From Thunnus maccoyii (taxonomy: Eukaryota; Chordata; Actinopteri; Scombriformes; Scombridae), in assembly GCF_910596095.1 (NCBI RefSeq), contig NC_056540.1, forward strand, positions 19,492,501 through 19,556,500: a stretch of 64,000 nt of DNA. The letters run 5' to 3'. Made by a program: the position numbers and the translations under genes. Numbering within the stretch: position 1 is the stretch's first letter; each line of letters opens with the position of its first letter. Shown here piece after piece: positions 6,520-46,411 of the stretch. The notes under the pieces were generated by a model. It ran no database searches. It saw only the letters and a program-made list of their open reading frames with translations, and was not told where the DNA came from.

Positions 6520-7160
6520 TAACTTAACCCTTAAATACTGTCAAGTCAAATTTTACCCATTTAAGAGCAGTAAAAACACCCTAAACACCTTCCTTTTAGC
6601 TCTACATTTTATGACTTTTCCTAAAGTGACCCAGAATATAAAAAAATAATTTTTATATAAAAAAATATTTTTTATATTCATTTTTGTGCAGCTGATACAC
6701 ATCTTAAAGTGTTCTGGGTTCAATTTGACTCATATTTATATAGAAAAATAAAAAACAAAAACTTGACATTCAAAAATGTTGTTGCATTCTTTACATTCAA
6801 TAACATTCACTGAAATTATTCTGGCTTTTATATTTTCCTGCTTTATGTAACACAGGACCTTGACATAGCTAAAAAAAAATCCACCATCTCTGCTCCCTGA
6901 AAGCTTAATTAAGGATTAATCACCCATTTGTTAATGACAAATGAGGTATTTATGAATGAAAAATAGATTTGTGGTTCAGAAATGTGGTATTGAGACTAAT
7001 TATGAGGCGATACTGTGAAGGGTCAGAACATGAACAGTATGTAAGGGTGGTATGGGTTTATTGTATATATGACTTTTTGTCTATTGTTTGGACCAAAATG
7101 TTTTATTAATTTGCATCAATAAATAACTCCCTAACTGTTACAGGATTAAGTCTTGTTCAT
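6520..7160 (-). mobile_element. Non-autonomous DNA-element-like repeat, family member 1 of 3
   Basis: On the minus strand this AT-rich stretch shares phrases with 61480-61990 and 52740-52985: CTCATAATTAGTCT, CATTCATAAATACCTCAT and an end related to GGGTCAAATTTGACC. No coding capacity was seen. The class is not known to me; a MITE-like element is the simplest reading. Confidence 0.5.
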
Positions 7161-7435
7161 ATATTTCTACTAAACATAAAAAATATACATTTGTAACACA
7201 TAATAGATCTTTTAAAGAGTATTTTAGTTAATTCACTCACTTTGATTCAGAGCAGGATTTCATAACAACACGTGATATCCAATTATATAACAATGAAACT
7301 AAATCTCCTTGATTCTTTCACTTTCCCCATTTTTGTCTCTTCTGCTTTATACTTCTGTCTCGGTATCTGTCAACTCAACTCTACTCTGTCAGACTCGTCT
7401 CCTGCATTTCTCTCTCTTCCTCTCTTTCTCCCAGT

Positions 7436-9859
7436 ATGGCGGCGTGGGACCTGTCAGTCATTGTGGAGGACCTGGGGCCCGATGCCCCATCTGTCACCGT
7501 CAGCGTGACCTCTGACCTCCACATAGGAGGGGTCATCCTCAAGCTGGTGGAGAAGACACGTAGGTCACTGTCTGTCTGCTTCGGTTTGTCTCAAATAAAG
7601 CTCCGTCAGTTTGTCAGTCAGTTTCACTGCGCAGACTAAAAATAGCTTCGCATGGACAAATTTGCATAGGGGAACAAGTATCACTTTATATTAAAGTTGC
7701 AAAACACATGTTTAAGTAATGCAGAACTAATGCATGACTCACTATGATTTAATACATACCAGTAATGATTGATAAAGCTTCAAACAGCTTCATATTTCTA
7801 CAAGAATAGATACCGTTCTGCTCTCAGGCTCATCGAATTCCCTTTTCTATATTTAACTAAATACTATATAACACTGATTGATGATCCATGAAGAATTAAG
7901 TGATCACATAAATTCATAGTGACTTGATGATTTCTTAATAGTGAGCAACAGGAATTTATGATGAGCTTTAAATCATCATGAGTCATGTATTAAGAATGTG
8001 TCTTGTAACCTTAATATAAACCTGTGTAACATTATGCACTTGTCTGTTTGGTCAGAGTAAATATTATTTTTAGTTGAAATGAGCTTTTATACCTTTTCAT
8101 ACCAAGCAATAACCATCATCATGTGCCTTTAGACCACACCTCTCTATCGGTCAATCAATCAAACTATATTTGTCCAGCACCTTTCATACAGATGACTATC
8201 TTCTCCTTATTTTGCTTGCACATCACTCTGACTGTTATACAACTGATACTTTTGATTGTCTTGATGAGAACAAGACAAACAAAAGTGTCTGATTGTGCTT
8301 TATTTTTTAAATTAAATGCTGGTATAACTTATTAGCTAAGACTGCCCATAGAGGAATCAGAATTGTTCATGGTTTAAAGATTTATATACAAGCCAAATAA
8401 AAAAAACACAGTCAAATATGTATTTACTTTTATCTCCTTTAACCAATTATTTTAAACTTATAGTATTTTTTTCCCCTAATTGTTCATTTTACTTGTCAGA
8501 AGAATATTTGTCTCTTATGTATCTTATGTTGGAATATGCTATTTGATTCTTTTACCCAGTGAAACAGGATCACCATACTAAGTTATGCAGCTTTTGACCA
8601 TTAAACATTTCCACTTGGCACTTAAATACACCTCTTTATGTGCTTTGTACTCAACTCTGCTGTCATCAGGTGAAGAAAGCTTTGATCTCCAAAATGGATC
8701 AATCATAGGAATTAAGAAAATCAGCCTCATTAGCAAAGTGATGATCATGAATTTTGAAATTATGACATTTGATGATCAAGTATTCTTAAACCACAAAGGG
8801 TTTGTCCAGTTTTTCGCAAGTCACTTTTCAGAGGCTTGAAAGTTTCCGGATTTTGACGAGCATGGTCAGATGATCCATGTCCTTACTCCATTTCTATTAA
8901 AATGTGCTATTTAATGGATCACTGGGAGGCAAACAAGTTGACCCTGACGTGATTTGAACACGCAACCTTCTGATCTGGAGTCAGACGCGCTACCGTTGCG
9001 CCACAGAGTCTCATACCGGTGCTGCACTGGTATATCTAGAAGGATCAAACATTGTTGGTGGTAAATTAGTCTCAGAGTGCCTCCATATTTGGTATAATAC
9101 GGTAAAACATCAGTTGGATCTTAATGGTCTGAGACTTGATATGAGGATCAAGTTCACGGATGGAGTTAATTGATTACCAACATAAGGTTTGTTTTAACCG
9201 AATATTTATTAAGTGTCATGAATATAAACATGATATCTAACATAGAGGTCACGTGTGGAATAGCCTACAATGTGGATACTATGTACATAACTCCCTTTTG
9301 ATCATGAAGAAGCAGTCTTGTTTAACCATCAAGTTTCTGACCTGGAGTCAGACAGTGCGCAACAGAGACCTACTGGTCCACTAGAGGTCACAAGCCTTGT
9401 GGTACTTGAGGTAAATTGGTCATATTTTTTCCAAGCTAATTGTCAGTTAATTGTCACTTTACGCGCGCGAATTAGAGGCCACTTTGGGTTCTTGATGTGA
9501 CAACATGTCTGGACAATAACTAAGACAACTAAAATGACGCATCATCACCTGAAGTTAATCTAATGGATGTCAACTGTGAGTTTTTAGTGAAGTGAAGTGT
9601 TTTGTGTCTGACTTCTGCAGAGATGAAGCGGGACTGGTCGGATCATGCGCTATGGTGGGATCAGAAGCAGCGGTGGCTGCTGCGGACATCCTGGACTCTG
9701 GAGAAATACGGCATCCACGCCGACGCTCGGCTGCTCTTCATGCCCCAACACAAGCCCCTGAAACTGGGCCTCCCCAACGGCATCACTCTGCGGCTCCGGG
9801 CCTGCTTCTCCAACCCCGTCTTCCAGACCGTGATGGGCATCTGCAGAATGCTCAGTGAG

Positions 9860-9922
<63 letters not shown>

Positions 9923-12900
9923 GTCTTTCTTTCTTTTTTTCTGTTCTTACTTCTTTCCTTCCTTCTTGTATTATGTTTCCTTCCATATTTCTTTCTTTCT
10001 CCTCTTTTTATCTCATTCCTTCTTTCCTTCCTTCTGTCCTTTATTTCTTTCTGACCTTGTTTCTTTCTTTTCTTCATTTACTTTCTCCCTTCCTTCATTC
10101 TTTTTTTTGTCTTTCATTCTCTTTCCTTCTTTCTCCCTTCCTTTTCTTCCATCTTTCCCTTTTTGCTTCTTTCTTTCTTCCTTTCTTTTTGCCTCACTCT
10201 GTCCACCAAAACCGACAAAAATGTAAAAAACACAAGACATTCAAACTTAAAACTGTCTCTTAAAATATCTCAAACCACTTTGACACCACATACATTGATG
10301 CATCCTATGAATCTATTCATATGCATCCTATAATTTGTGATAAAGAGACATTAACTCTATTTTTTTAATCAAAGTAAATAATCCAAGTCAGTCTTCCATC
10401 CACAACGTCCACCATAATTTCCATCCTCAGTATCTATCACTCCTCTCCTCCTCTGTCTTCTTGCTGGTTGTCAGTAGTCACACCGCAATAACTGTTCACA
10501 ACCTAATTATTCTTCGAGACGTGTAAAAGTGTCTCATTAATATGTTGCAGTCTAATTGGCTGTAACAACCAACACCATTGCCAGGAAAGAAGACCTTCAC
10601 CATCTGTTTCGTGCTTTCATTTAGTCTAATTTTGGCACTTCTTGGTCTCAATCCCTCACCAGAAATCCCCAGGAGGTGACAGCAGACTGGAAAGGTTTTG
10701 AAAAGCAGCAAGCAGAGACGAAATAATGAAATCCGTCAGTAGAAAAGCAGCTTAGAGGGAGCCGAAAAACAGATTAAGAAAGCTCAGATTTGTATCAAAG
10801 TTACGATGCAGCAGGTATTTCAAACACATAGAGGAGGAACTTACACATGAGGATAAACCTCTGTTAAATCCCTTTGTGCATGAAAACAAAGGAAACATTT
10901 AAACTGGAGAGTAGAATAAAAGACAAGTCCTGAATATTAAAAATTAAAAACAGTGTAACAAGCATGGCATTTGACCAGACTTTTATTCACAGTGGATTTA
11001 TAATAATGGTTTCCAGGGTTTTCAGTCTTAACAGGAAGATAATTACTGGAAATAACAGCCTTACAGGAAAGAGACATTTCTCTCCTGTGATTATGTGTCT
11101 CTCTGATACATGAAAAATACTCACTGAGACCCCGACATGAACACACAGCTGTCTAATGAGGAACAAGACACAATACTACTGCGCCACATCATGAATTGGT
11201 TCACTGATCAGTTTGTTTGTAGATATTAAATGTATGATTTCTCCTGTTGAGCACCAGAGAGTCCAGACGTTCCCTGAGAAACAAACATATTGACCCTGAT
11301 GTGATCTGAATACACAACCTTCTGATCTGGAGTCAGACACGCTACCGCTGCACCACAGAGTCTGTTTTGAGTTTTTCACATCTATACAGTATGTGCCTGC
11401 AAAATATTTATTATAACTCCACAGTGTGATCCTATAGGCACAATTACAACATTAAACATAATGAGATTGCAAGTCATGAAGAAACGTATCAACCGTGAAA
11501 TGATTTGAATGTGCAGTGTTTCAAACAGCAGCAGCGAGTAAAATGCATTTATCAGATTCAGTTAATGTGTTTGTGACACTGACCGAGGACGGAGTTGCTT
11601 GAACTGATGTAGATCAGTGATGTATGAGATTCTGAGACAGCTTTGACTACTGACAGCTGCTCAAGAGCAAACATATTGAGATAAGAGTTCATGAAGATAC
11701 ATATTGACCCTGATGTGATTTGAACATGCAACCTTTTGAGCTGCATTCAGACGTGCTACTGTAGCACCACAGAATCCCCTTTAAGCCTTTATCTAGTCAA
11801 CTGATCAGCTAACAAACCAGGGAAGAATATTGTTTATCTATTTTTGCACAGGCTGTGGTGGAATAAGTAGACAGGTAGTTTTTGAAAGCCACTCTGCAAT
11901 GTTTTTATCTGTACTGGCTGATCTCAGAAGACAGACATTTGCACAGAATATAATACAGTACAGGCTACACACAGTTATTACTCGCAAGCGCAACAGAGCA
12001 GCATCGTGTTTACTACACACAGGAAAGCTTAAATATTGACCCTGATGTGATTTGAACATGCAACCTTCTGATCTGGAGTCAGACCGTTGCACCACAGAGT
12101 CTGTTTTAAGTCTTACTACTCAACTAATCAGCTGAAAGAAACAAAAGGGGGGTAAAAAAATCTTTCAAATGCTATGCCAATTTGCACGTAAAGTGCAGTA
12201 GTTTCAGCACAACAGTTTAATACCAATTTGAAGTAAAAGATGTTGATATTGAATCATTTTTTTCACAGGTTGTCTTGGTGGAAGAGTTTGCAGATAGATT
12301 GTTATAGATTTTAGAAGCACTGTGCAGTGAGTGTATCAGTAAGGCAGCAGTTACCAGAAGAACTAGACAGCATCACAAAAAGACAAAGTTTTTTCTTGTG
12401 AGTACAACAACACATGTTGCAAAGCTTAAATTTTGACCCTGACGTGATTTGAACACGCAACCTTCTGATCTGGAGTCAGACGCGCTACCGTTGCGCCACA
12501 GAGTCTGTTTTAACCCTTTAAAAAGTTGACTAATCAGCTGACATAACAAAAACTAAGGGGTGAATAAAAACATTTTGTGTTTGTCATCAGTGCAACATTA
12601 CAACGTTTATAAAGTTGGAGGTGGAAGTGGAGAGTAAAAGACGGCTGCTTAAATCACTTTTGAAATGCTATGACAGTTTGGAATTGTAAAGTGCAATAAT
12701 TTCAGCACATCAGTTCAGTACTGATCTGAAAGCAAAATTACTGATCCTGAAGTGATATAAAACCAAAATCGTCTAATGAGGAGCAAGACACACCACTGTA
12801 ATGTCATAGTGTCTGACAGCAGCAGTTGGTTCACTGATCAGGGTTTGTAGATACTATCTGTATAATTTCCCCTGTTCTGCACCACAGAGTTCAACATAAA

Positions 12901-15900
12901 GGACAGAGCTTCCCCTATTGACCCTGACGTGATTTGAACACACAACCTTCTGATCTGGAGTCAGACGGGCTACCGTTGCGCCACAGAGTCTGTTGTAAGC
13001 TGCTAATTAGTCAAATAATCAGCTGACAGACCAAGAACTAGAGGAAGGAATACATTTTTTCTATTTATATTTTCCAATTAATATTGTTTTGCGCAGGTTG
13101 TCTTGGTGGAAGAGGGAGGGAGGTAGATTTTCATAATTCTTCAACACACATGACTGTATTAGCAGTAAGCAATTTTAGGGGGGATGCCATCCCCCTTGTT
13201 AGCAAAATGACCAAAATGCATTCCCCTTGTTAACTTTCCATCCCCTAGTAGTACAGAGAGTGCAGGGGAAAAGGGGTTGTTTAGTTGAATATATTCATCT
13301 AGTCTGCCTCACTTATTGATCTTTTTCCTCACTGAGGTTTGTGCAAGTTAGATTCTGTGGCCCCGACCATGACTCTGAAATATCAGTAGCCTAACTGTGC
13401 TGTGTATTGATAAATCCATGACGCTGTTCTGATGTTCCGATCTGGAGTCAGACTCGCTACCGTTGCACCACAGAGTCTGTCACAGCACTAAATTGTCAGG
13501 TAATTAGCTGACAAATTGAAAACTAGAGGAAAGGATAAAAACATTTTCACCATATCTATTTTGTAATTTTTGCAGGTAGATTGTTATAGATTTTAGAAGC
13601 ACTGTGCAGTGAGTGTATCAGTAAGGCAGCAGTTACCAGAAGAACTAGACAGCATCACAAAAAGACAAAGTTTTTTCTTGTGAGTACAACAACACATGTT
13701 GCAAAACTTAAATTTTGACCCTGACGTGATTTGAACACGCAACTTTCCGATCTGACTTTATGACCTAAAGGGTCATTTTTCTTGAGAGGACAGGCTCTAA
13801 AAAATGATATGAAAACACAACCATCTAATCAAGTGCAAGAGACACAACTATTTGTTCACAGCGGTGGACAGCAGCAGCTGGTTAATGTTTGTCAATAGGA
13901 TAGGGATAGAACAGGTCTTTTTTGAAATGAAACATTTTTTGCCCAGGTTGTCTTGGTGGAAGAGTTTGCAGGTAGATTGTTATAGTTTTTAGAGGCATTG
14001 TGCAGTGAATGCACCAGTACTGCAGCTGGCTGGTCCTAGAAGAACTAGACAACAGCACATACAGACAAAGTTGTTGTTTGTAAGTGCAACAACACATTTA
14101 ATACACGTTGCAAAGCTTCAATTTTGACCCTGACGTGATTTGAACACGCAACCTTCTGATCTGGAGTCAGACGCGCTACCGTTGCGCCACAGAGTCTGTT
14201 TTAAACCTTGTAACAATAGGTTGTTTTTGGCATTGAAATTTACAACCTATAGGCAGTCCCGGCGTTATGGCCAGGCCATGGGGGCCAGGCTTGCCCATCC
14301 AGGAATCTGGCCCTCCCAGTAGAAGTCAGCATCAATGCTGTTTTAATGTACGGGCTTACTGAGAAAAAATAGAATAAAATTCACAGGGAGGAAAAAAAAA
14401 CTCAGGCTTCATTTGTACATTTTTTTGTCCATTTGTGATGTCTGGATTTAGAAGCAAAGGGAGACATCGCGTCGTGTTTAGTATCTCTGTTATTTTTCTT
14501 GGGAGGACAGGCTCCAAAAACAAGTGATATGACAACCATCTAATTGAGTGCAAGAGACACTACTATTAGTTCACAGCGTTGGACAGCAGCAGTTGATTCA
14601 CTGATCAGCTGGTTAATGTTTGTCGATATCGTATGTGTGATTTCCTGTGTTGAGCACCACAGAGTTCACGATAAAGGACAGAGCTTCCCATGTTGACCCT
14701 GACGTGATTTGAACACGCAACCTTCTGATCTGGAGTCAGACGCGCTACCGTTGCGCCACAGAGTCTGTTTAAAGCTGCTAATCAGTCAAATAATCAGTTG
14801 ACAAACCAAGAACTAGCGGAAAGGACAAAAATAACCATTTTTTTCTTTGTCTATTTTCTGACGAATATTGTTTTGTGCATGTTGTCTTGGTGGAAGAAGC
14901 AGGCAGGTAGATTTTCATAGTTCTTAAAAGCGCAGTACAATGACTGTATCAGCACTGTAGCAGACTGATCCCAGAAGAACTGGACAATTGCACGTAGCAT
15001 AATAAAAAAACAACAAATCCTCCAAATTACACAACCGCATAGGTCATTTGTACCTGCACTCCAGAACGACCCATTGGAGCGTAATATGCTACTTTCCAAA
15101 GCCCCTACGAATCACTTAGAAAATAATGATGTTTTATGATGTGACAATGTTGTGGTTAAGGTCTGGTTAGGTTTAGGCACAAAAACCACTTGGTTAGGGT
15201 TTCGGAAAGATCGTGATTTGCGTTAAAATGTTCACTTAAAATGTTGTTACTACTTTCTTAAAGTTAGGAAACCTTTGTGGTCATGGCAACAGTAAACATC
15301 ATGTTACAGTTTGTTTTGTTTTTTTTTAAAAAGTCCTGTCAGTTGGAAACGGGAAGTGAACTGTGGTCTGCTGCAGCTGAGTCCACTTTGTGCCAACATC
15401 TAGCCATCAACCCAACCCGCATCCTTGTAATAAGGAAGTCACCTTATATAGACGTCATCTAAACTGTGTCACTTCTCCAGGTCATAATTACTACGACCAC
15501 TAGATGGCATCTGTCACTCAAATGTAACAATAGTTCATTTTTGGCGACTGAACTTACGAAATATAGGGTCATTTGTCTTCGTAGGACAGGCTCAAAAAAA
15601 GTGATATGAAACCACAACCATCTAATCAAGTGCAAGAGGCACTACTATTAGTTCACAGTGTCAGACAGCAGGAGCTGGTTAATGTTTGTCAATATTATAT
15701 GTATGTCTTCCTCAGTTGAGTGGCAGAGTTCACGATAAAGGACAGAGCTTCCCATATTGACCCTGACGTGATTTGAACACGCAACCTTCTGATCTGGAGT
15801 CAGACGCGCTACCGTTGCGCCACAGAGTCTGTTTGAAGCTACTAATCAGTCAAATAATCAGCTGACAAACCAAGAACAAGTGTAAAGGACAAAAATAAAT

Positions 15901-18900
15901 TGATGATATGAAACCACAACCATCTAATCAAGTGCAAGAGGCACTACTATTAGTTCACAGTGTCAGACAGCAGGAGCTGGTTCACTGATCGGCTGGTTAA
16001 GGTTTGTTGATAACATCTGTATGATTTCCATGGTTGAGCACCACAGAGTTCAACAAGAGGGACAGAGCCTCTCATATTGACCCTGACGTGATTTGAACAC
16101 GCAACCTTCTGATCTGGAGTCAGACGCGCTACCGTTGCGCCACAGAGTCCACAGCAACAGCAACTAATCAATCAATTAGCTGACAAACTGAAAACTAGCG
16201 GAAAGGATAAAATATTTTCACCATATCTATTTTGAAATGAAACATTTTTGCCCAGGTTGTCTTGGTGGAAGAGTTTGTAGGTAGATTCTTATACTTTTTA
16301 AAAGCACTGTGCAATGAATGTAGCAGGCTGATCCCAGAAGAACTACACAGTAGCACATATAGACAAAGTTGTTGCTTGTAAGTGCAACAAGACATTTAAT
16401 ACATGTTACAAAGCTTAAAATTTGACCCTGACGTGATTTGAACACGCAACCTTCTGATCTGGAGTCAGACGCGCTACCATTGCGCCACAGAGTCTGTTTT
16501 AACCCTTTAAAAAGTCAAATAATCAGCTGACAAAACAAAAGCTAAGGGGAGAATAAAAACATTTTTGGTTTGTCATCTGTGCAACATTACAACGTTTATA
16601 AAGTTGGAGATGGAAGTAGAGAGTAAAAGAGGGCTGCTTAAATCACCTTTGAAATGCTATGACAGTACCGATCTGAAAGCAAAATTACTGATCTTGAGCT
16701 GATATAGAAATGACAATCATCTAATGAGGAAGGAGACACACCACTGTAACGTCATAGTGTGTGAGAGCAGCAGTTAGTTCATTGATCAGCTGGTTAATGT
16801 TTGTCGATATCATATGTATGACTGTGTTTGTAGACACTATATGTATGATTTCCTCTGTTGAGCACCACAGAGTTCAACATAAAGGGCAAAGGCTCTCATA
16901 TTGACCCTGACATGATTTCAACACGCAACCTTCTGATCTGGAGTCAGACGCGCTACCCTTGCGCCACAGAGTCTGCTTGAAGCTACTAATCAGTCAAATA
17001 ATCAGTTTACAAACCAAGAACTAGCAGAAAGGACAAACAGAACCATTTTTTTCTTTGTCTATTTTCTGACGAATATTGTTTTGTACATGTTGTCTTGGTG
17101 GAAGAAGCAGGCAGGTAGATTTTCATAGTTCTTAAAAGCGCAGTACAATGACTGTATCAGTACTGTAGCAGACTGATCCCAGAAGAACTGGACAATTGCA
17201 CGTAGCATAATAAAAAAACAACAAATCCTCCAAATTACACAACCGCATAGATCATTTGTACCTGCACTCCAGAACGACCCATTGGAGCGTAATATGCTAC
17301 TTTCCAAAGCCCCTACGAATCACTTAAAAAATAATGATGTTTTATGATGTGACGATGTTGTGGTTAAGGTCTGGTTAGGTTTAGGCACAAAAACCACTTG
17401 GTTAGGGTTTGAGAAAGATCATGGTTTGTGTCAAAATGTTCACTTGAAACGTTGTTACTACTTTCTTAAAGTTAGGAAACCTTTGTTGTCATGGCAACAG
17501 TAAACATCATGTTACAGTTTTTTTTTTTTAAAGTCCTGACTGTCAGTTGGAAACGGGAAGTGAACTGTGGTCTGCTGCAGCTAAGTCCACTTTTTCCCAC
17601 CATCTAGCCATCAACCCATCTAAACTGTGTCACTTCTCCAGGTCATAATTACTACGACCACTAGATGGCATCTGTCACTCAAATGTAACAATAGTTCATT
17701 TTTGGCGACTGAACTTACGAAATATAGGGTCATTTGTCTTCGTAGGACAGGCTCTAAAAAAGTGATATGAAAAAACAACCATCTAATCAAGTGCAAGAGG
17801 CACTACTATTAGTTCACAGCATCAGACAGCAGGAGCTGAGTAATGTTTGTCAATATTATATGTATGTCTTCCTCAGTTGAGTAGCAGAGTTCACGATAAA
17901 GGACAGCGCCTCCCATGTTGACCCTGACGTGATTTGAACACGCAACCTTCTGATCTGGAGTCAGACGCGCTACCGTTGCGCCACAGAGTCTGCTTTAAGC
18001 TACTAATCAGTCAAATAATCAGTTTACAAACCAAGAACTAGCGGAAAGGACAAACATAACCATTTTTTTCTTTGTCTATTTTCTGATTAATATTGTTTTG
18101 TGCAGGTTGTCTTGGTGGAAGAAGCAGGCAGGTAGATTTTCATAGTTCTTAAAAGCGCAGTACAATGACTGTATCAGTACTGTAGCAGACTGATCCCAGA
18201 AGAACTGGACAATTGCACGTAGCATAATAAAAAAACAAGTCCTCCAAATTACACGACCGCATATGTCGTTTGTACCTGCACTCCAGAACGACCCATTGGA
18301 TCGTAATATGCCACTTTCCAAAACCCCTACGAATCACTTAGAAAATAATGATGTTTTATGATGTGACAATGTTGTGGTTAAGGTCTGGTTAGGTTTAGGC
18401 ACAAAAACCACTTGGTTAGGGTTTGAGAAAGATCATGGTTTGTGTCAAAATGTTCACTTGAAACGTTGTTACTAATTTCTTAAAGTTGGGAAACCTTTGT
18501 CGGTATGGCAACAGTAAACACCATGTTACAGGTTTTTTTTTAAAAGTCCTGACTGTCAGTTGGAGACGGAAAGTGAACTGTGGTCTGCTGCAGCTAAGTC
18601 CACTTTTTTCCACCATCTAGCCATCAACCCAACCCGTCTCCTCATAACAACAAAGTCACCTTATATAGACGTCATCTAAACTTTGTCACTTCTCCAGGTC
18701 ATAATTACTACGACCACTAGATGGCATCTGTCACTCAAATGTAACAATAGTTCATTTTTTGCGTCTGAACTTACGAAATATAGGGTCATTTGTCTTCGTA
18801 GGACAGGCTCTAAAAAAGTGATATGAAACCACAACCATCTAATCAAGTGCAAGAGGCACTACTATTATTTCACAGTGTCAGACAGCAGGAGCTGGTTCAC

Positions 18901-21900
18901 TGATCGGCTGGTTAAGGTTTATTGATAACATCTGTATGTTTTCCATGGTTGAGCACCACAGAGTTCAACATAAAGGGCAAAGGCTCTCATATTGACCCTG
19001 ACGTGATTTGAACACGCAACCTTCTGATCTGGAGTCAGACGCGCTACCGTTGCGCCACAGAGTCTGTTTTTAACCTTCTAACAATGTAACAATAGGTTGT
19101 TTTCGGCATTGAAATTTACAACTTATTCGCAGTCCCGGTGTTATGGCCAGGCCATGGGGGCCAGGCTTGCCCATCCAGGAATCTGGCCCTCCCAGTAGAA
19201 GTCAGCATCAATGCTGTTTTAATGTACGGGCTTACTGAGAAAAAATAGAATAAAATTCACAGGGAGGAAAAAAAAACTCAGGCTTCATTTGTAAATTTTT
19301 TTGTCCATTTGTGATGTCTGGATTTAGAAGCAAAGTGAGACATCGCGTCGTGTTTAGTATCTCTGTTATTTTTCTTGGGAGGACAGGCTCCAAAAACAAG
19401 TGATATGAAAACCAATTGAGTGCAAGAGACACTACTATTAGTTCACAGCGTTGGACAGCAGCAGTTGATTCACTAATCAGCTGGTTAATGTTTGTCGATA
19501 TCATATGTATGACTGTGTTTGTAGATAATATATGTATGATTTCCTGTGTTGAGTACCACAGAGTTCACGATAAAGGACAGAGTTTCCCATATTGACCCTG
19601 ACGTGATTTGAACACGCAACCTTCTGATCTGGAGTCAGACGCGCTACCGTTGCGCCACAGAGTCTGTTTTGAACCTTTAAAAAGTCGACTAATCAGCTCA
19701 TAAAATAAAAACTAAGGTGAAGGATAAAAACATTTTGTGTTTGTCATCAGTGCAACATTACATCCTTTATAAACTTGGAGGTGGAAGTAGAGAGAGAAAA
19801 ACGGCTGCTTAAATCATTTTTGAGATGCAATGACAGTTTGGAAATCTAAAGTGCAATAGTTTCAGCACATCAGTTAAGTACTGATCTGGAAGCAAAATGA
19901 CTGATCCTGAAGTGATATAGAAATAACAATCATGTAATGAGGATGGAGACACACCACTGTAACGTCATAGTGTCTGAGAGCAGCAGTTGGTTCATTGATC
20001 AGCTGGTTAATGTTTGTTGATATCATATGTATGACTGTGTTTGTAGATACTATATGTATAATTTCCTCTGTTGAGCACCACAGAGTTCAACATAAAGGAC
20101 AGAGCTTCCCATATTGACCCTGACGTGATTTGAACACGCAACCTTCTGATCTGGAGTCAGACGCGCTACCGTTGCGCCACAGAGTCTGTTTTATACTACT
20201 AACCAGTCGACTCATCAGCCGACAAACCAAACACTGGTGGGAGAGATTAAATGAATAGAAGTGTATGTTATGTAAGTCAGTTCAACTATCAGTTTAATAA
20301 ATTAATTGTTCAGTGATTCAGATGTAATTTTACTACAACAGACACTCATCTCCAGTTTTATGGACATACAGGATTTCCAGGAGAATACAATTAACAGTCC
20401 AGTGAATCAGAAGTCACTTTTTTGTAACAGTCCAACATCATAACCCTGATTAACTTGGAGATGAAGGGTCATATACCATTAAAACCTGCTCACCTTGCAC
20501 AGATGTCCTGTGTGAAATGATGAGGTCAACAGTCAACAAACCCACAGTGTGGATCCTACATGAATAATCCCCACATTTGAACATAAGGAGATGACAGATC
20601 CTGAAGACACATACCGACTCTGATGTAATTTGAACAGACAACCTTCTGATCTGAAGTCAAACATCCTACTATTGCACCATGGAGTCAGTTTTAAGCTTTT
20701 ACCTGGTGAACTAATCAGCTGAATCAAACAAAACTAGGGGAAGGATAAAAAAGTTGGAAGTAGAGAGTGAAAGAGGGCTGCATAAATCACTTACAGTTCT
20801 TCAGTAACAAAACTAATGATTTTCACAAACCCTCTGCTCTCTGTTATCTCCACAGACATCCGTCGCCCTGAGGAGCTCTCGCTCCTTCGACCCGTAGAGG
20901 AGAAGAAGAAGAAGAAAGATAAAGACTCGGCTGAAGAGATTTACGACCTGACCGAGGTGCCCCTCTCCTCGGGTACACTCATCACACTTCATTCACACTC
21001 CAGGCAAAACATTTCATGGCTTTGACTGATGCAGGATGTTTACAATCCTTTAAAAATGATAGAATAGCAGATTTCATGTACTGCCACAATTTAACCTCAT
21101 GTTTATCAATAAGCAGATTTTTATAACTGACTTTGAATCAGTGCAGTGTTGCCATTACCCCAGTATGTAGTTTTTTCAGCATAGTCATAGCCAATCAGGT
21201 GTATTATATAAGGTAACAATAATCACTGAAAAATCTTGCTTTTGTAGAGTCAGTTATGCCTCCGAGAAACAATTAAAGAAACAATTAAAAAAATAACTGG
21301 TATTTGGCATGAGCTCCTCAAAGAGTTTTATTCGCACAAATTGAGCCATATATTATAATATGTATATTGTATATTGAGAGGTCAGATTTTGAAGTCTACA
21401 AACTCTTGGGAAAACTGGAGTTAACTGTTATTGTACACTTCCTTTGCAGCATCCCGGCCCAGTTTGTATAACGGCATGCCGGCTCATTTTGCTGACTCGA
21501 CCCAGATGGAGGACATCTACAAGATGCTGTCAGTCACCCAGCCTCCCCCTGCTCCTGAGACCATAGCCAAGCAGTACCGCCCAGCCAGTGTGGTGGACAA
21601 GGCCCACATCCATGGCAGGTATGACTACACCCATACCTGTACAGTAATCCCCTCCTTTAAAAGGGGGCGTATCATGCCTCTTGTGATTCTCTGAGTCCAG
21701 CGTTCATGGAGATTCAAGAAAAAAAATTTAAGGGATTAAATGTTATGTTGTCATTGCACAGTGTTTTTACCCCTCACTGGGCCAACTCTGTAATCATACA
21801 ACTATCTTGACTTGTCTGATGACGTGGACTCTCGCAAGTCGCAAACATGGGAATCATTCCCTTCTTTCCCATCAATCCTATATGACATGAACGCAGCAGA

Positions 21901-29890: not shown

Positions 29891-32800
29891 TCAAAATGAA
29901 AAATAATCTGAACTGAATTTATCTATATGATTGTTTTTCTCACTTGTAGGTCTCAGTTTTAGGGCTCGACTGAAGTATTTAGGGAGAAGTTTTCCCTCTG
30001 CGTCGCCTGCAGTCAGCAAAACACCGTTCTCTGACCAGAAGAACTCAATACCATCTATGCAGTCAGACACACACATACAGTTAAACATGTCAGTTTGTTG
30101 TCACTGGACTGGATTGAACATATTGGGTTAGCAGTCATTAGCGTCTTACGTTACCAGCAAGAGCTTTTGGTACATCAATAAAAACGGCTAGATCACAGTC
30201 TCTCCTCATGCCTGGTGGGGAAAAGAATGACACCATTGGAAGAATGTATCTAAATGTTTATCTGACAAGCTTCTCCTTGTCACACACACACACACAGCTT
30301 ACCGCTGATGACACCATCCTCTCCTGGCAGGCCTGGTGCCAGATGGATGTGTGTCCTCTTCATGCGGCTCAGGCCCTGTTGCTGGATGGAGCTCCAGTTG
30401 CGGATGTAGGAGCCATGGAGGGCCTCAGCAGGGCAGTCTGGAGAACCAGCCAGGACCGGCTTCAGCTCCAAATCTGTTACCTGATCACAACAATGCCACA
30501 AGTATTAACGCAACACTTAGGATGAGGGCACATTGCAGATTTTTTTGGACCAGATAAAAACATTAAAATCTGCCTGGGGTGATGATATTGTTGCTTAATT
30601 AGTTGTGAAGATCTTGTGGTGAAATTGGACCACTATCAGAGAAACATAAAGTGAGAAACTAATAGCAGGATTAAATTCCAAGGCCAGCGAGGGTTTGTAT
30701 ACATCTCATGTTCAGCTCACATGTGCATTTTTGCTTCAAACGGCTCTGTCAATTACTAGTTATAATCAAAAAAGGAAACATAATCAAGACACATGTTAAA
30801 GTCACACTTTAGCACCAGAGTTGGTGCTATTCCCTAAAGTCTTAGTGTGCTTTCAACTGACATTGTTTTCACTTATTTTACAGCATTAGAAATAATGTTT
30901 CTTTTTTTAAATGATTGTCAGAGGACTAACAGCATATGTCAGCTGATAATTAGATTGAAGGTGATGTTTTGAAGGTGTAAATTGTTTTATTACATTGGTA
31001 TTTTGAGCTGTGGTTGGATCTCCCAGAGTTAATTTTCCATCATGCAGGATGTAAATGTGTAGTAGAGTAGAGTATATACTCCTACCTGGAAAACATCCTG
31101 TTATTCACTCTCTGTCTCTCACACACACAAACATATTGATTGGCCTTTTGACTACATCACTATCTCTGCATACTGTACTTCACATTGCTGTTTGGTTTTA
31201 TATCCATATGTGTGGCTGCAGAGAGGTAAAGGAGAAACACTAGGATGTTTTTCCATCTTAAGTCCATTCTGTTTTAAACTGAAATATAAATTAAACACTG
31301 TATACACCAAAGGACTTAACACATCCTTTCATACTGGTCTTCTAGGGAAATGAAAGATCCTCTTTTCAGCACCTCATCTGATATTTACAACTCTGCATAC
31401 CTGCACTGAATGGCCCTGATTGGCTCGAATCTGCAAGCGGCCGTCCTCTGGGTGGGAGCGAAGCTTAAAGCGCTGCTTGTCATTTGCAGCCACGACTCTC
31501 TCGACGTCCTCCAATGAATATGAGCGGAACTGCGAGTGAGCCAGGAGGTCCTCCACAAATAGGAAACCATCTATGAGGATGAGAGTCATTATGGCTGCGG
31601 TCACACTCTTTTATGTTCCTCTTTGCCTCGAACCGCACATTTTGTTAAACCGAAAAGACAGATGTTGATGTTATGAATGATGCAGAAATCTCACCTTTAC
31701 CATCTCTGTAACTAATAATGACAATACTACTTTAAGGTAAGATCATGAATCCTGTCACATGCCAATGCACATTTTCTTGTAAAAAGGTAAACTAACCACA
31801 TTATCACCATGGTTTTAGACAATTAGGCACTTATCCAAGAACCAGAGACCCAAACCAATACCTGAGATGTATTTTCTAATGTGAATTCAGCTTGACAAGG
31901 AGCAGTCGGTAGCATATGTACAGCATTTCATCCTGTTACGTGCACTTGAACCAGGTTAAGACACGGATGAACAATCCAAAGCAGAGGTTGTAATGATCTA
32001 TTACGCTGCACTGTCCATTATAAAATAGACAACAATCTAGCTTAAATCTATATTTGCTGTCAAAGTTGTGTCAAAACCTGTATCAGTGTCAGTGATTGTG
32101 TTTACTGTTCACTTGTGTTTACCAGTGCTGGAAGAATTATTCAGGACCCTTAGTTAAGTAAAAGTACCAATACAGCAATTTCAAAATACTCCATTACAAG
32201 TAAAAGTCCTGCAAGAAAACCCTACTTAAATAAAAGTACACAGGTTTTGCAGCTAAATGCATTTATTATATATGACATCATTATTACTTTATATACATTT
32301 AGTTTGTGGTTCCAACCTAGGGGTCAGGCCCCTCTAAAGGATCACCAGATAAAAAACAAAGTTCTGATACATAAATTGGTTTTACAAATTTCCTCTGATT
32401 TTTTGGTGAAATATTGGATCATTTGAACATTTATTGAAATGAAACCATGTGAGAAGTTTAGAGGGAAAAATCACTATTTGGTGGAGCTGTTAACAACTCA
32501 TAGACATGTGAAATGTGACCCCGACTACACACTGCTTTTTTTAAGACGTCAAAAGCCAAAAAGGTTGGAAACCACTGATTTCATCTTTAACAATATGTTG
32601 TATTTTAAAAGCTTGTTATATTATCCATTGTGTCAAATCATCATCTGAAAAGTAACTAAAGCTGTAAAATAAAGGTAGTGGAGTGGAAGTACAAAGTAGC
32701 ATCAAATGGAAATAAAAAGTAGAGTACAAGTACCTCAAAATTGTACTTAAGTGCAGTACTTGAGTAAATGTACTTAGTTATTTGCACAAACCAGTTTGTG

Positions 32801-33149
32801 TCCAGCTCACCTGTACCCATGTGGAGACCCATCTGGTTGGCTCCATGGCGAAGAGCATAAGACATGGATTTAGACAGGCGGACATCTCTGTCCTGGCAGA
32901 GGGAGAAGGCATCAATCATAACAGACACACACACTTAAAGTCAGTTCTAATCATAGCTCTGGTTTAAATATAGGACCTTGACTTAACCGTGCCAAACAAT
33001 CCATACTGCCTGCCTTAACAGCCACTAAACGGAGGTGTCATGAGTCAGAAATGGGCCTGTGTGAGCTAATTATATCTCACCTCTCCACCGCGGCTTCCTC
33101 TCTTTCCTCTCCCTCTTCTGCCTCCTCTTCCTCCTCTGTCACTGTCCAT
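29891..33149 (-). CDS. trpt1: trpt1, tRNA 2'-phosphotransferase 1
   Basis: Six coding exons on the minus strand: 33149-33081, 32892-32811, 31570-31401, 30480-30303, 30211-30155 and 30054-29891. All junctions are GT-AG with matching phases, giving 239 residues (human about 253). TRPT1/Tpt1 transfers the 2'-phosphate left at tRNA splice junctions to NAD+. Family-conserved catalytic parts are present: Arg38-His39 in YALRHG, the IRANQGHS motif, the HGSY motif, RTHIHLAPGLPG, and the GMRRDC arginine. Residues 5-21 are an Arg/Gly-rich N-terminus, as in human. The C-terminus after RPT (SEKNNHIDKF...) is read through to the first stop and is unlike human; a further 3' exon cannot be excluded. Intron 2 holds a dispersed AGTAAAAGTA-type repeat, and the exon 4 donor is followed within seven bases by a TG repeat. 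It is convergent with fermt3 and divergent from zbtb3. Confidence 0.92.
32115..32785. mobile_element. Non-autonomous element with AGTAAAAGTA / GAGTAAATGTAC ends
   Basis: The left side has TTAGTTAAGTAAAAGTACCA and the right side CAGTACTTGAGTAAATGTAC. Both are phrases of a very common fish element, here with unrelated AT-rich sequence between them. It sits in trpt1 intron 2 and ends about 25 bp from exon 2. A related fragment is at 60640-60730. Confidence 0.5.
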
Positions 33150-34480: not shown

Positions 34481-34677
34481 TTTAAGGATATTTTCTAAGC
34501 CAGTTGCCTAGATATTACATTTGAGCAAGTAATTATTTTCCAAAGAAATCATAAGAGAACAGCCAAAAAGTATAACATCAAGGTGTATTATGCAACTGAC
34601 TACAGACCTGCAGCATTTTCTCTTTATTCCATTGCCTTTGCTTTCCTCTCATTTTTATCTTCTCCTTTGCTCAGGTG

Positions 34678-37600
34678 ATGGAGTTCCCACAGCATTCCCA
34701 GCAGCTGCTGTCAGCTCTGCGTTCCCAGCGCCAGCGGGGCTTCCTGTGTGACTGCACCGTCCTGGTGGGCTCATCCCGTTTCTTGGCTCACCGGGCTGTT
34801 TTGGCCTCCTGCTCGCCTTTCTTCCATATGTTCTACTCAGATTCTCCAGGCAGCAATGGTGCAAATGGCACCAGCAGCTCTGTCACACTCGACAGCGACA
34901 TTGTCACGGCTGCTGCGTTCAGCTTGCTCTTGGACTTTGTGTATGAGGGCGTGCTGCAGCTGGAGGAGTCACCACCAGTGGAGGACATATTGGCAGCGGC
35001 AAGCTTCCTGCACATGAACGAGGTGGTGAGAGTGTGCAAGAGGCGACTTCAGAGACGAGGGCCTGTGGCCGAGGCAGACAGCACTCGCTCTGAAGAGGGC
35101 ACTGGTGCAAGGAAGGCAGTAGAGATTGGGAGGGGAAGTGGGGGGGATGGTGGAGCTGAGCCTGTGATGGCAGCAGATCACTTGAATCCCGTCGCCATGG
35201 CAGCGCCTCTCTCATCAGTAACCGTGATGACAGAGAGGAGTCTGTTGGAGTCTGTGAAGTCTGAGCGCAGAAATGGCGGCGGTTCATCAGAGACACGAGT
35301 TCAGACCCCTCTGAGCCCTGACCTCGCTGATACCACCCAGCCAGGCATGGACGGCCCTCCTCTGCCCCCAGGTGGAGAGTTGTTGCAGGGCCACACCGCA
35401 CACCAGTCTGCCCCGGCCTCTGGAGGTCACGCCAGGTTGGGGACTGGCAGTCAGGGTGAAGGGTCAGCACTCTGCAGCCCCTGTAGCACCACTGAGACGT
35501 ACAGGTACTGGTCTGTCGTGAGTTTCTAGACTGTTTTAAGTTGATGAAAATAAAAACAGAAACACTACAAAAACAGCACTCTAAACATTAAAGTGGTGGA
35601 CTGTAGTTTTAATACTTGTTGGCAGCCTGAAATCTTAATCCAGGTCCTAACAACAACAATAACAACAACAATAGAACATAAATAGTTTCCTTTGAGCTTG
35701 AAGTAGAATTGAAGTCAGAAGAACAATAATAATCTGAATCAGGAACATATTTCACTAAGCACATGAAAGACAAGTGTTAGTACAATTAAATGAAAAATTT
35801 GAAAACAAAAAAAGATCAATTCGATGACTGAAGATAAGAGTTAGGAAATATACACATACAAACAACAAACCAATAAAAAAACATGAATTTCCAATGGAAG
35901 TAAGGTTTTAATAAATGTACATAATGTGAGAGAAGTGCATTGCAATCATTGGTTCTAGTAAAATATATGGTGGAAAAATATAGTACATAAAGCATATTGT
36001 GTAGAAGTATTTACATACAGTACACTGGACATAATGTGCAAAGTTCATGCAGGGAATAGAGGAGATGTGGTGTAATAGATGACATATTGTCAGTCTGTGT
36101 AGTAGGGAAATAACACTTTATCTGTAGAGTTTAGAGCTGCTACAATTAGTCAATTAACGGATTAGCTGATCAAAAAAATGAATCAGCAGCTGTTTTGATA
36201 ATCGATTAATTGTTTTAGTCATTTTTTAAGGAAAAATGCCAAACATTTCCTGATTGCAGCTTCTCAAATGTATAAGTACTATAATGATTTTTAAAAAATT
36301 GCTGACAAACACTGTCGTCTGAATTTCACATTTTTATGATTTTTGTGTGTTTGTTTTAACCTTTAGCATTTATTTTTAAAAGTTGTGAAAACAACGGGGG
36401 TGTTTTGAATACACTCCCGTTTTCACAGGTAATTTGTTAGTCTGTACCTCTTACGGCAGGAAACAATGGATTACTCCTGGAAAGCTATTGATGTAGCACT
36501 TTTCTCCTTATGAAAATAACACAGAGATTATTCGACCAATGAGAATTTAGTCGGACGAGAGCATATCGACCAACTAATCGACCAGTCGACCAGCAGACTA
36601 CAGCCCTAGTTTCTATATGTGCTGATGGAATTTTTCTTGATTTGATGTTACTAAAAGACTGTTAATGTCCTCCCTCTTTTCTATCTTTTACCAGTCACAG
36701 CAGTAACCAGCTGCCCTCCTCTTCCTCCCTGGTCCCAGTGAGCCAGGCTGGTAGTCGGTCAGCGGTCGCCCTTCTCCAATCTGAATCCAGCCTTTGCCCC
36801 AGCCCCCATCAGGACACATCCCGACTTCCCAGTAACAATGACTCTGTTGGAAAACCCTCAGAGACTGACCGCAGAGGTACATCAAGTGAAGAACAACAGA
36901 TGGTTATGTTGATCCACGCATCAGCGCTATCCTCACACTTGCAAACCAACCCGACACAATTGCCACCGCAGCGCTCACACCCCCAGATCCAAATCCAGAA
37001 CGCTGTATCACTCCAACGCCGAAGCCCAAACCTTCACTCTGCTTCCCAGACACTCACAAGGCCTGGAAGGGAGACGGGAGTTTCACCCACACTTAGGGAT
37101 GGAAGATCTCACCCTCTTATGGGCAGAGTGAGGACGGAGGAGTATGAGGGAGAGAATGTGAAAGTCAAAGTGGAGGCCATTGTTATATCTGATGAAGAGC
37201 TAGAGGAGGAAAAAGATGGAGGCAGAGAGAGCGACCCGGTGATGGAAGTGGACAATGACTTTGACGATGACATGCAGGAAGAGGAGCTGAGCAGCCCTCA
37301 GCATCTCTCCTCCCGCACCCAGGCCCTCTTACAAATGTCCGCCCATTCCAATGACTACTCCTTCCCTCTCTCGCCTTCCTCCTCCTCCTCCGGTGCCGGC
37401 CCTTCCTCCCAGGACACTTCCTCCTTCTCTGCCTCCCTCATTCCTCCATCCACAGCCCAGCAGCATTCGGACGCTCCTGCCTACTTTCAGGAATTCCAGG
37501 ACACCATGGGGAACTTTGTAGAGGATGTCCCGACGTGCGGCGTCTGTGGAAAGACTTTCTCATGCACATACACGCTAAGACGGCATGCCATCGTGCACAC

Positions 37601-37772
37601 AAGAGAGCGCCCCTACGAGTGCCGCTACTGCTACCGGAGCTACACACAGTCAGGCGACCTGTATCGACACATTCGTAAAGCTCACGACCACACCCTGCCG
37701 GCCAAACGCAGCAAGGCAGATGTGGAGCACACCCTGCCACTACAACCACCACCACCACCACCTCTTAGCTAA
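34678..37772 (+). CDS. zbtb3: zbtb3, zinc finger and BTB domain-containing protein 3
   Basis: Two coding exons, 34678-35504 and 36695-37772, joined in phase 2 (TAC AG|T CAC), give 634 residues (human 574). The start ATG is four bases into its exon and opens [11 protein letters not shown], as in human ZBTB3. Residues 1-125 are the BTB domain ([20 protein letters not shown], ending [13 protein letters not shown]). A Ser/Pro-rich middle keeps short human-like islands: DTTQPGM, STET, and [13 protein letters not shown] with a VKVE sumoylation-type site, then an acidic stretch. Residues from about 557 carry two C2H2 zinc fingers ([21 protein letters not shown] and [24 protein letters not shown], joined by TRERP). 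Family knowledge: a nuclear DNA-binding transcriptional regulator, BTB for dimerisation. A 1.2-kb intron separates BTB and finger exons. Confidence 0.94.
36121..36612. mobile_element. MITE-like repeats in zbtb3 intron
   Basis: GAGCTGCTACAATTAGTCAA at the left and CTAATCGACCAGTCGACCAG then CTACAGCCCTAG at the right are end motifs of common fish MITE-like elements with GCTGCAAC-type termini. Possibly two related elements side by side. Confidence 0.5.
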
Positions 37773-45589: not shown

Positions 45590-46411
45590 GTGAGTTTTTA
45601 TAGCTACAGATGACTGTTACAGGCATGCTGCTGTTGGACACCATATGTTTTTTTTAAAAAGAGATATTTTTAATGCGTCGTTGGACAAAATATATTTATA
45701 GTTACAAATGCTTTATCCTTTTTGGCCAGCATAACTCTTGAACTGAAAATCTCAGCAAGTCCCCTTCCTTCTGTTTAATTTTATTTTATCACTCAAATGT
45801 GATTAAAACTTACGTCACATGAAATGAGGAGGTAAACATCCTAATTTTCCAGATATTTGGAGTTTATTGTGGAGAACTGATAAATACCTTTAGTCCACTT
45901 TCATTTTTTACACAATGCATAATAAGTCAAAACAAGCTGTTACACATTTCTTGGTCACTTCTCGGCTTCTTGATAAAACAGTCAGAATAGCAGCTGACTG
46001 ATGACGCAGTTTGGAGTCATCAGATGTGAAAGACTTTTGCCTGTGACTGAGATTGGACTCGGTGGTTTCACAGCTATCGGTGCTCTCAGTGATGGCTTGT
46101 GTCTTTGGCCTCATGGGATCATAGCATCATCAACCACATTGCATTTTTATGACTTTACACAATGCTAAATGTGTCTTTTTTTACATGAAAATGTGGATCA
46201 GATAACTTTTTGGAAAACGTTTCAATCTCCACCACCGTGAGCCAAACGGAGTCAGTATGTTTCTGTTAATTACTTCTTTTAGCTTGTGTTTATAACGTGG
46301 GTCATTTATCTTTCTAAGTTGTTTTTATGTTTTCTCCTTTTCCTGATTTGTTTTTTAGATAATTTCATTAACTTAATTGGTCGTCGCTTTATTTGAAGAT
46401 CTTTAGATTCA

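What the first reader, a model, noticed from the sequence alone, without database searches (positions are those of the whole stretch)
8939..20686. Antisense array of about 17 tRNA-Trp(CCA) genes and relics inside fermt3 introns 1 and 2
Ten copies are identical by eye over 72 nt, three more differ by one to three bases, and the worst-decayed copies cluster in the first part and at the last position of the array (9325-12101 and 20615). This fits a core homogenised by unequal exchange or gene conversion, with flanks left to decay. An array this size for a single-codon amino acid, all antisense within a protein-coding gene, is unusual.
Basis: partly seen in the sequence, partly recalled or inferred. 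Interest (0 to 1): 0.72.

Follow-up and report, generated by a model that had tools for sequence, protein, structure and literature searches.

The report
tRNA-Trp gene array inside fermt3 introns
A vertebrate (probably fish) gene for a cell-adhesion protein carries in two of its introns, on the opposite strand, about seventeen copies of one transfer-RNA gene, ten of them letter-perfect; this is a real but essentially ordinary kind of tRNA gene cluster, with a readable record of how such clusters grow, shuffle and decay.

Summary
On the minus strand of fermt3 introns 1 and 2 lie 17 full-length or nearly full-length tRNA-Trp(CCA) copies, two half copies and one short relic. Ten are identical over 72 nt, three differ by 1-3 bases, four are decayed. 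Best reading: a locally amplified tRNA-Trp cluster under birth-and-death evolution, its intact copies kept by purifying selection more than by array-wide homogenisation. Flanks of perfect copies have diverged, often beyond recognition, while the tRNA has not; close sister pairs have about 22 expected and 4 observed tRNA differences; the intron-1 copy is perfect with unrelated flanks. Flank identity falls beyond 60 nt in three of five groups, which leaves room for some conversion. Exchange did occur: 5' and 3' flanks have different histories, but a hotspot at the tRNA is not shown. Against full function, only 1 of 13 good copies has TTTT within 30 nt downstream. Large teleost tRNA clusters, and Arabidopsis tRNA clusters opposite introns, are in print (PMC2888827, PMC10701932).

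The parts
7436..7559 (+). fermt3 exon 1, coding part from ATG (host gene); donor GT at 7560
   Evidence: phmmer to kindlin-3 chains, E 3e-4; splice site and frame
9621..9854 (+). fermt3 exon 2; donor GT at 9855
   Evidence: phmmer to kindlin-3, E 6e-33; splice sites and frame
20856..20975 (+). start of fermt3 exon 3 (the end of the exon was not determined)
   Evidence: acceptor CCACAG before 20856; frame continues as [13 protein letters not shown]
8939..9010 (-). tRNA-Trp(CCA), perfect copy, alone in intron 1
   Evidence: flanks unrelated to the others
9335..9353 (-). short tRNA-Trp relic (anticodon arm) in intron 1
   Evidence: 18 of 19 bases; 49-nt match to the 12037 copy, E 1.4e-4
11291..11362 (-). 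decayed copy, 7 differences, 2 of 6 CpG kept
11705..11776 (-). decayed copy, 11 differences; loop ATGCAGC (triplet GCA in the anticodon place, read by eye); not called by ARAGORN
12037..12101 (-). decayed 65-nt copy; lacks bases between D loop and anticodon stem
12434..12505 (-). perfect copy
12919..12990 (-). 2 differences (positions 23, 49); the first mismatches the D stem, and the MFE fold is not a cloverleaf
13435..13477 (-). 5' half copy (tRNA positions 1-43), ends in CAGATCGGAA
13716..13754 (-). 3' half copy (tRNA positions 34-72), begins with CAGATCGGAA; with 13435-13477 it bounds a circularly permuted unit
14125..14196 (-). perfect copy
14694..14765 (-). perfect copy
15758..15829 (-). 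perfect copy
16078..16149 (-). perfect copy
16423..16494 (-). 1 difference (C16T, D loop); highest Rfam score (70 bits); the only one of 13 good copies with TTTT within 30 nt downstream (+3)
16902..16973 (-). 3 differences, one in the T loop (position 55, C to G; inside the internal promoter B box by recalled consensus)
17919..17990 (-). perfect copy
18993..19064 (-). perfect copy
19593..19664 (-). perfect copy
20115..20186 (-). perfect copy
20615..20686 (-). most decayed 72-nt copy, 16 differences, 0 of 6 CpG kept

Best explanation
A tRNA-Trp(CCA) gene, by chance antisense to fermt3, was amplified in place by tandem duplication of units of roughly 0.3-1.1 kb. Units have since been duplicated in blocks, recombined with each other (in spacers and across the tRNA body), deleted and broken. 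Shown: related tandem units, mixed flank histories, relics, and a conserved tRNA between diverged flanks. Inferred: the intact copies are used, transcribed by RNA polymerase III from their internal promoters against the direction of fermt3, and kept mainly by purifying selection on the tRNA. Copies that lose a key base stop being maintained, become CpG-methylated and decay. The array is thus a supply of ordinary tRNA-Trp under birth-and-death evolution, spliced out of fermt3 pre-mRNA with the introns.
For: Fifteen ARAGORN and 16 Rfam tRNAs, anticodon CCA in all 15 ARAGORN calls. Spacers are related tandem units. Trees of the 60-75 nt flanks of the nine perfect intron-2 copies imply 106-158 changes per 72 nt if neutral, against none seen (inflated where flanks are not homologous). 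Sister pairs by 5' flank distance: 19.4 differences expected, 1 seen in three pairs, P 7e-8; with a fourth pair that holds damaged copy 16902, 22.3 expected and 4 seen, P 2.5e-6 (distances). In four flank groups the ten bases beside the gene are no more alike than the next ten. The perfect intron-1 copy has unrelated flanks. CpG: 60 of 60 kept in ten perfect copies, 3 of 18 in the three 72-nt relics; spacer CpG observed/expected 0.36 against 1.09 in the tRNA. Splice sites and frame of fermt3 are intact over exons 1 to 3.
Against: No expression data. Only 1 of 13 good copies has TTTT starting within 30 nt downstream and 3 of 13 within 60, no more than random sites in the array (20% and 36%). 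Flank identity declines beyond 60 nt in three of five groups (to 0.62-0.68 at columns 91-120), as conversion tracts around the gene, or ends of homology, would also give. RNA folding of the perfect sequence is only moderately better than shuffles (z -1.65) and puts the anticodon arm in a shifted register. The number of tRNA-Trp genes elsewhere in this genome is unknown (nine unanswered genome-search requests).
Confidence: 0.65

Rival explanations
1. The identical core is kept mainly by gene conversion or unequal exchange (concerted evolution), and selection on individual copies matters little.
For: Exchange is real: 15 of 22 copy pairs that are close on at least one flank are distant on the other, and flank trees reject each other. 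Flank identity falls with distance beyond 60 nt in three of five groups. Conversion among tRNA genes is documented (cited in PMC5745555, passages read).
Against: Spacers are not homogenised (with the baseline). No rise of identity in the last ten bases before the gene. Damaged copies 12919, 16902 and two halves persist inside the core. Copy 8939 lies apart with unrelated flanks yet is perfect.
Confidence: 0.24
2. Copies are tRNA-derived retroelements (SINEs) or retrocopies of mature tRNA inserted repeatedly.
For: tRNA-derived SINEs occur in fish (recalled). Copy 8939 shares no recognisable flank with the others.
Against: Good intron-2 copies share flanks as tandem units in one orientation. None of 13 good copies is followed directly by CCA or has a run of six A within 40 nt. 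No hit of 8800-20900 elsewhere in the window at E 1e-6.
Confidence: 0.04
3. The array is an assembly artefact (false duplication).
For: Tandem repeats are error-prone; no reads were available.
Against: Spacers differ: whole-spacer matches reach 91% at best, and the best partial stretches are 97% over 300 nt and 99% over 147 nt. Relics with 7-16 changes are not assembly noise.
Confidence: 0.03
4. The array's main role is in cis: Pol III complexes antisense in fermt3 act as roadblock, insulator or regulator of the host gene.
For: Position and orientation; tRNA genes as insulators (recalled); intronic tRNA lookalikes affecting splicing (PMC7722341, title and start of abstract in the listing only).
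Against: What is conserved is the 72-nt tRNA, including anticodon and CpGs, and not the flanks; no test of fermt3 expression was possible.
Confidence: 0.04

Closest known systems
Large tDNA clusters of teleosts and Nematostella (Bermudez-Santana et al. 2010, PMC2888827)
   Same: Many tRNA genes and pseudogenes close together, mostly in parallel; rapid turnover; clusters of fifty and more members reported in teleosts; 87% of stickleback and 65% of zebrafish tDNAs clustered (passages and section 6 read).
   Different: That paper finds mostly heterogeneous pairs (different amino acids) in zebrafish; this array is of a single isoacceptor and lies in one protein gene. Of ten spacers between good copies listed, nine are under that paper's 1000-nt limit.
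Arabidopsis tRNA-Cys, tRNA-Pro and tRNA-Ser/Tyr clusters (PMC10701932; passages read)
   Same: Single-family tandem tRNA units, a pseudogene preceding the tRNA-Cys cluster, tRNA-Cys genes in a second intron; tRNA-Pro clusters said often to overlap introns on the opposite strand.
   Different: Plant; tRNA-Cys units there are regular (0.4 kb) and annotated as Helitrons; here spacers are irregular and no Helitron test was made.
Circularly permuted tRNA genes (PMC3978253; start of abstract in the listing only)
   Same: 3' half precedes 5' half of a tRNA, as at 13754-13435.
   Different: Here the halves are 238 nt apart with a spacer of the array between them and look like breakage, not an expressed permuted gene.

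Membership tests
Functional cytoplasmic tRNA-Trp(CCA) genes | Fit to the tRNA covariance model, with anticodon CCA | tested here: met
   68.3-70 bits for 11 copies, gathering cutoff 29; anticodon cca
Functional cytoplasmic tRNA-Trp(CCA) genes | Nearby canonical Pol III terminator (run of four T) | tested here: not met
   1 of 13 good copies within 30 nt, 3 of 13 within 60. Some human tRNA genes are recalled to lack one, so this does not exclude function; weaker T-rich stretches are present, their use untested
Functional cytoplasmic tRNA-Trp(CCA) genes | Transcribed and charged with tryptophan | not testable with these tools
   no expression data held
Homogeneous tDNA cluster (PMC2888827: neighbours within 1000 nt, same isoacceptor) | Same isoacceptor, neighbouring tDNAs within 1000 nt | tested here: met
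   10 spacers between good copies listed: 248-1002 nt, 9 of 10 under 1000; the eleventh, 12991-14124 (1134 nt), holds the two half copies; copy 8939 lies 2.3 kb apart and fails this limit
Concerted evolution of the whole array | Spacers homogenised together with genes | tested here: not met
   pairwise 150-nt flank identity 49-96%, unrelated baseline 46-74%
tRNA-derived SINE | Dispersed copies with A-rich or simple-repeat tails and target duplications | tested here: inconclusive
   no copy outside the array in this window and no A-run after 13 good copies; the rest of the genome could not be searched and target duplications were not tested by a script

The most novel reading that the evidence does not exclude
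The array is remodelled mainly through the tRNA bodies: breaks or stalled forks at the tRNA genes let units swap partners there. Single units also leave as circles and return opened inside the tRNA, leaving the permuted unit at 13435-13754, whose half genes overlap by ten bases and share one private change.
Probability: 0.2. Interest if true: 0.55.

Novelty: new member of a known kind. Interest (0 to 1): 0.33.

Why it matters
Ten identical tRNA genes with distinct, diverging spacers, beside relics of graded age in one intron, make a compact natural test of how tRNA gene numbers are kept: selection copy by copy against homogenisation. The locus is bounded by exons of a known gene, so it can be followed across fish species. 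It also poses a concrete question about Pol III termination in perfect tRNA genes without a T4 run, and about antisense Pol III load inside a blood-cell integrin-activator gene (role of fermt3 recalled).

Tried and rejected
Own-genome count of tRNA-Trp genes: the same genome search was sent nine times and never answered, so no genome-wide or cross-species statement is made.

Viral contigs: the exact 72-mer gave 0 matches.

tRNA genes as recombination hotspots: ends of 36 homology blocks of at least 200 nt fall in or near tRNA copies in 28 of 144 cases (10-nt pad), no more than in shifted controls (mean 16%, 253 of 1000 shifts as high; wider pads likewise). A hotspot is not shown, although topologies do switch across the gene.

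Cassette test: the two ends of the same spacer do not correlate (r 0.06, p 0.34, n 10; r 0.00, p 0.44 with the eleventh spacer), so spacers are not intact cassettes overall.

Insertion of the permuted unit into a long (C-type) spacer: the right flank matches such spacers (score 211), but the left flank 13164-13434 matches nothing well (best score 62), so a simple insertion is not shown.

Exon 2 was not copied along with the units: its only other hit at E up to 1 is a 13-nt match at 1758-1770. The seven Rfam hits other than tRNA (miRNA, snoRNA, fluoride riboswitch, enod40) are all below their gathering scores and were dismissed.

My first check for copies elsewhere had dropped plus-strand hits to the left of the query; it was redone properly (0 of 365 hits outside or reversed).

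Not in print: ten searches (open-licence papers only) listed no paper on this locus; 'fermt3' with 'tRNA gene' gave 0 papers. Subscription papers were not searched.
Full report
WHAT IS THERE. ARAGORN reports 15 tRNA-Trp genes with anticodon cca, all on the minus strand between 8939 and 20186. Rfam's tRNA model reports 16 at its gathering score, adding 11705-11776. A laxer search of 7000-21000 adds 20615-20686 at 28.1 bits, just under the 29-bit cutoff. Of these 17, ten are identical over 72 nt (8939, 12434, 14125, 14694, 15758, 16078, 17919, 18993, 19593, 20115). Copies 16423, 12919 and 16902 differ by one, two and three bases; 11291, 11705 and 20615 differ by 7, 11 and 16; 12037-12101 is 65 nt long. 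In addition there are two half genes, 13435-13477 (tRNA positions 1-43) and 13716-13754 (positions 34-72), and a short relic near 9335-9353.

THE HOST GENE. Window translations match kindlin-3 (fermitin family homolog 3) chains: exon 1 at E 3e-4 and exon 2 at E 6e-33. Splice sites GT-AG and an open frame join 7436-7559, 9621-9854 and 20856 onward. Copy 8939 and the short relic lie in intron 1; the other copies lie in intron 2.

TANDEM UNITS. Spacers between copies are related to each other in one orientation. Three long spacers (14766-15757, 16974-17918, 17991-18992) are 88-91% identical; 12506-12918, 16495-16901 and 19665-20114 are 73-82%; 14197-14693 and 19065-19592 are 91%. No hit of 8800-20900 lies elsewhere in the window, or on the other strand, at E 1e-6 (365 hits examined). 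One founder orientation copied by duplication explains why all copies are antisense.

SELECTION OR HOMOGENISATION. Over 13 good copies, 150-nt flanks give 49-96% gapped identity in pairs; 192 pairs of unrelated window stretches scored the same way give 46-74%, mean 61%. So many flank pairs are no longer recognisably related, and the array is not homogenised as a whole. In four groups of related flanks the identity of the ten alignment columns beside the gene is 0.78-0.87 and that of the next ten 0.88-1.00 (a fifth group, a pair, had only two aligned bases there); it is 1.00 in the gene among the perfect copies. Against my reading, identity falls to 0.62-0.68 at columns 91-120 in three of the five groups, which conversion around the gene could cause, as could the ends of shared blocks. 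Copy 8939 is perfect while its flanks match the others ungapped at 0.13-0.40 per 10-nt bin (random 0.26), with no significant BLAST match apart from the relic beside it. Trees of 60-75 nt flanks of the nine perfect intron-2 copies have lengths of 1.5-2.2 substitutions per site, or 106-158 expected changes in 72 nt, with none seen; for all 12 good intron-2 copies 118-240 are expected and six single differences are seen. These lengths are inflated where flanks are not homologous, so I also used disjoint sister pairs by 5' flank (distances): three pairs, 19.4 expected, 1 seen, P 7e-8; with the fourth pair 16902/17919, 22.3 expected, 4 seen, P 2.5e-6. Damaged copies (12919, 16902, two halves) stay damaged inside the core. 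I conclude that purifying selection on single copies is the likelier main cause, with some conversion not excluded.

DECAY. The tRNA has six CpGs; the ten perfect copies keep 60 of 60, the three 72-nt relics keep 3 of 18, and 16 of their 34 changes are C-to-T or G-to-A at CpG positions, which are 12 of 72 positions (the 65-nt relic was not counted). Spacer CpG observed/expected is 0.36. This fits methylation of copies no longer in use (inference). Decay at the array ends is p 0.17 with all 20 elements, 0.029 without the half genes and 0.003 for intron 2 alone without them; the subsets were chosen after looking.

EXCHANGE. The 5' and 3' flanks of the 12 good intron-2 copies tell different histories. 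Of 66 pairs, 22 are close on at least one side (distance up to 0.15); 15 of these are distant (0.25 or more) on the other and one is close on both. Distance matrices across the gene correlate weakly (r 0.11-0.19, p 0.10-0.27), while same-side windows with the same 72-nt gap give r 0.41-0.69, p up to 0.003 (of the 36-nt-gap controls, the 3' side was low, 0.11 and 0.35). The 5' flank data reject the 3' flank tree (difference in lnL 87) and the reverse (126); trees of neighbouring same-side windows are rejected too by the AU test, but far less (19 and 23), and not by the SH test. Copies 12434, 19593, 14125 and 18993 show two 5' types, each with the 3' type of 12434/14125 and without it, a four-gamete pattern. 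Against a hotspot at the genes: homology block ends are not enriched there (28 of 144), and spacer ends do not travel together (r 0.06). So exchange happened across and between genes; that the genes are its preferred site is open.

A PERMUTED UNIT. At 13435-13754 one spacer lies between the 3' half and the 5' half of a tRNA, in that order on the tRNA strand. The halves overlap by exactly ten bases (positions 34-43) and share a change at position 40. The stretch aligns with 16107-16461, from mid-tRNA to mid-tRNA, at 73%. A circle of one unit, opened inside the tRNA and reinserted, would look like this; two independent truncations or template switching are alternatives, and the left flank does not fit a clean insertion.

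HOW IT WORKS, AND DOUBTS. The likeliest function is plain: extra tRNA-Trp made by Pol III from internal promoters, antisense to fermt3. The fit to the tRNA covariance model is strong. Thermodynamic folding alone gives a four-armed structure with the anticodon arm in a shifted register, z -1.65. The main doubt is termination: TTTT starts within 30 nt of only 1 of 13 good genes (16423, at +3), within 60 nt of 3 and within 150 nt of 4, against 20%, 36% and 62% for random sites in the array (the copies are related, so this is not 13 independent trials). No expression data, other species, or genome-wide count could be obtained (nine unanswered requests).

WHAT IS KNOWN. PMC2888827 (passages and section 6 read) reports 87% of stickleback and 65% of zebrafish tDNAs in clusters, teleost clusters of fifty and more, mostly parallel orientation, and names local duplication as prime suspect and fork pausing as a source of instability; it also finds pufferfishes and medaka with mostly isolated tDNAs. 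PMC10701932 (passages) describes an Arabidopsis tRNA-Cys array preceded by a pseudogene, a tRNA-Cys pair in a second intron, and says tRNA-Pro clusters often overlap introns on the opposite strand. [quoted passage not shown] PMC5745555 (passages) summarises conversion and turnover of tRNA genes. This array is therefore a well-preserved new example of a known kind.

Noticed in passing
13435-13754: Circularly permuted unit: 3' half tRNA, spacer, 5' half tRNA, with a 10-base overlap and a shared private change; possible trace of a reinserted circle.
   Followed up: partly
3' flanks of 12919, 14694, 16078, 16902, 18993, 19593, 20115: A stretch CTCTGTGGT, like the tRNA 5' end, starts 30 nt downstream of 7 of 17 copies examined; perhaps the stub of a lost tRNA copy.
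   Followed up: no
11705-11776: A decayed copy with GCA where the CCA anticodon should be (read by eye); probably a pseudogene.
   Followed up: no
32659-32934 (-): Start of a Tpt1/KptA-like tRNA 2'-phosphotransferase gene (Pfam 24.7 bits, cutoff 26), a tRNA-processing gene downstream of fermt3; likely coincidence of conserved synteny (recalled).
   Followed up: no
34600-37769 (+): BTB domain exon followed by C2H2 zinc-finger exon (Pfam), a ZBTB-type gene.
   Followed up: no
46397-46744 (+) and 54438-54752 (+): Exons matching seipin and inositol polyphosphate kinase families (Pfam).
   Followed up: no
41560-42027 (-): 156-aa open frame that reads like a LINE-type protein piece by eye; no Pfam match at 1e-3.
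   Followed up: no
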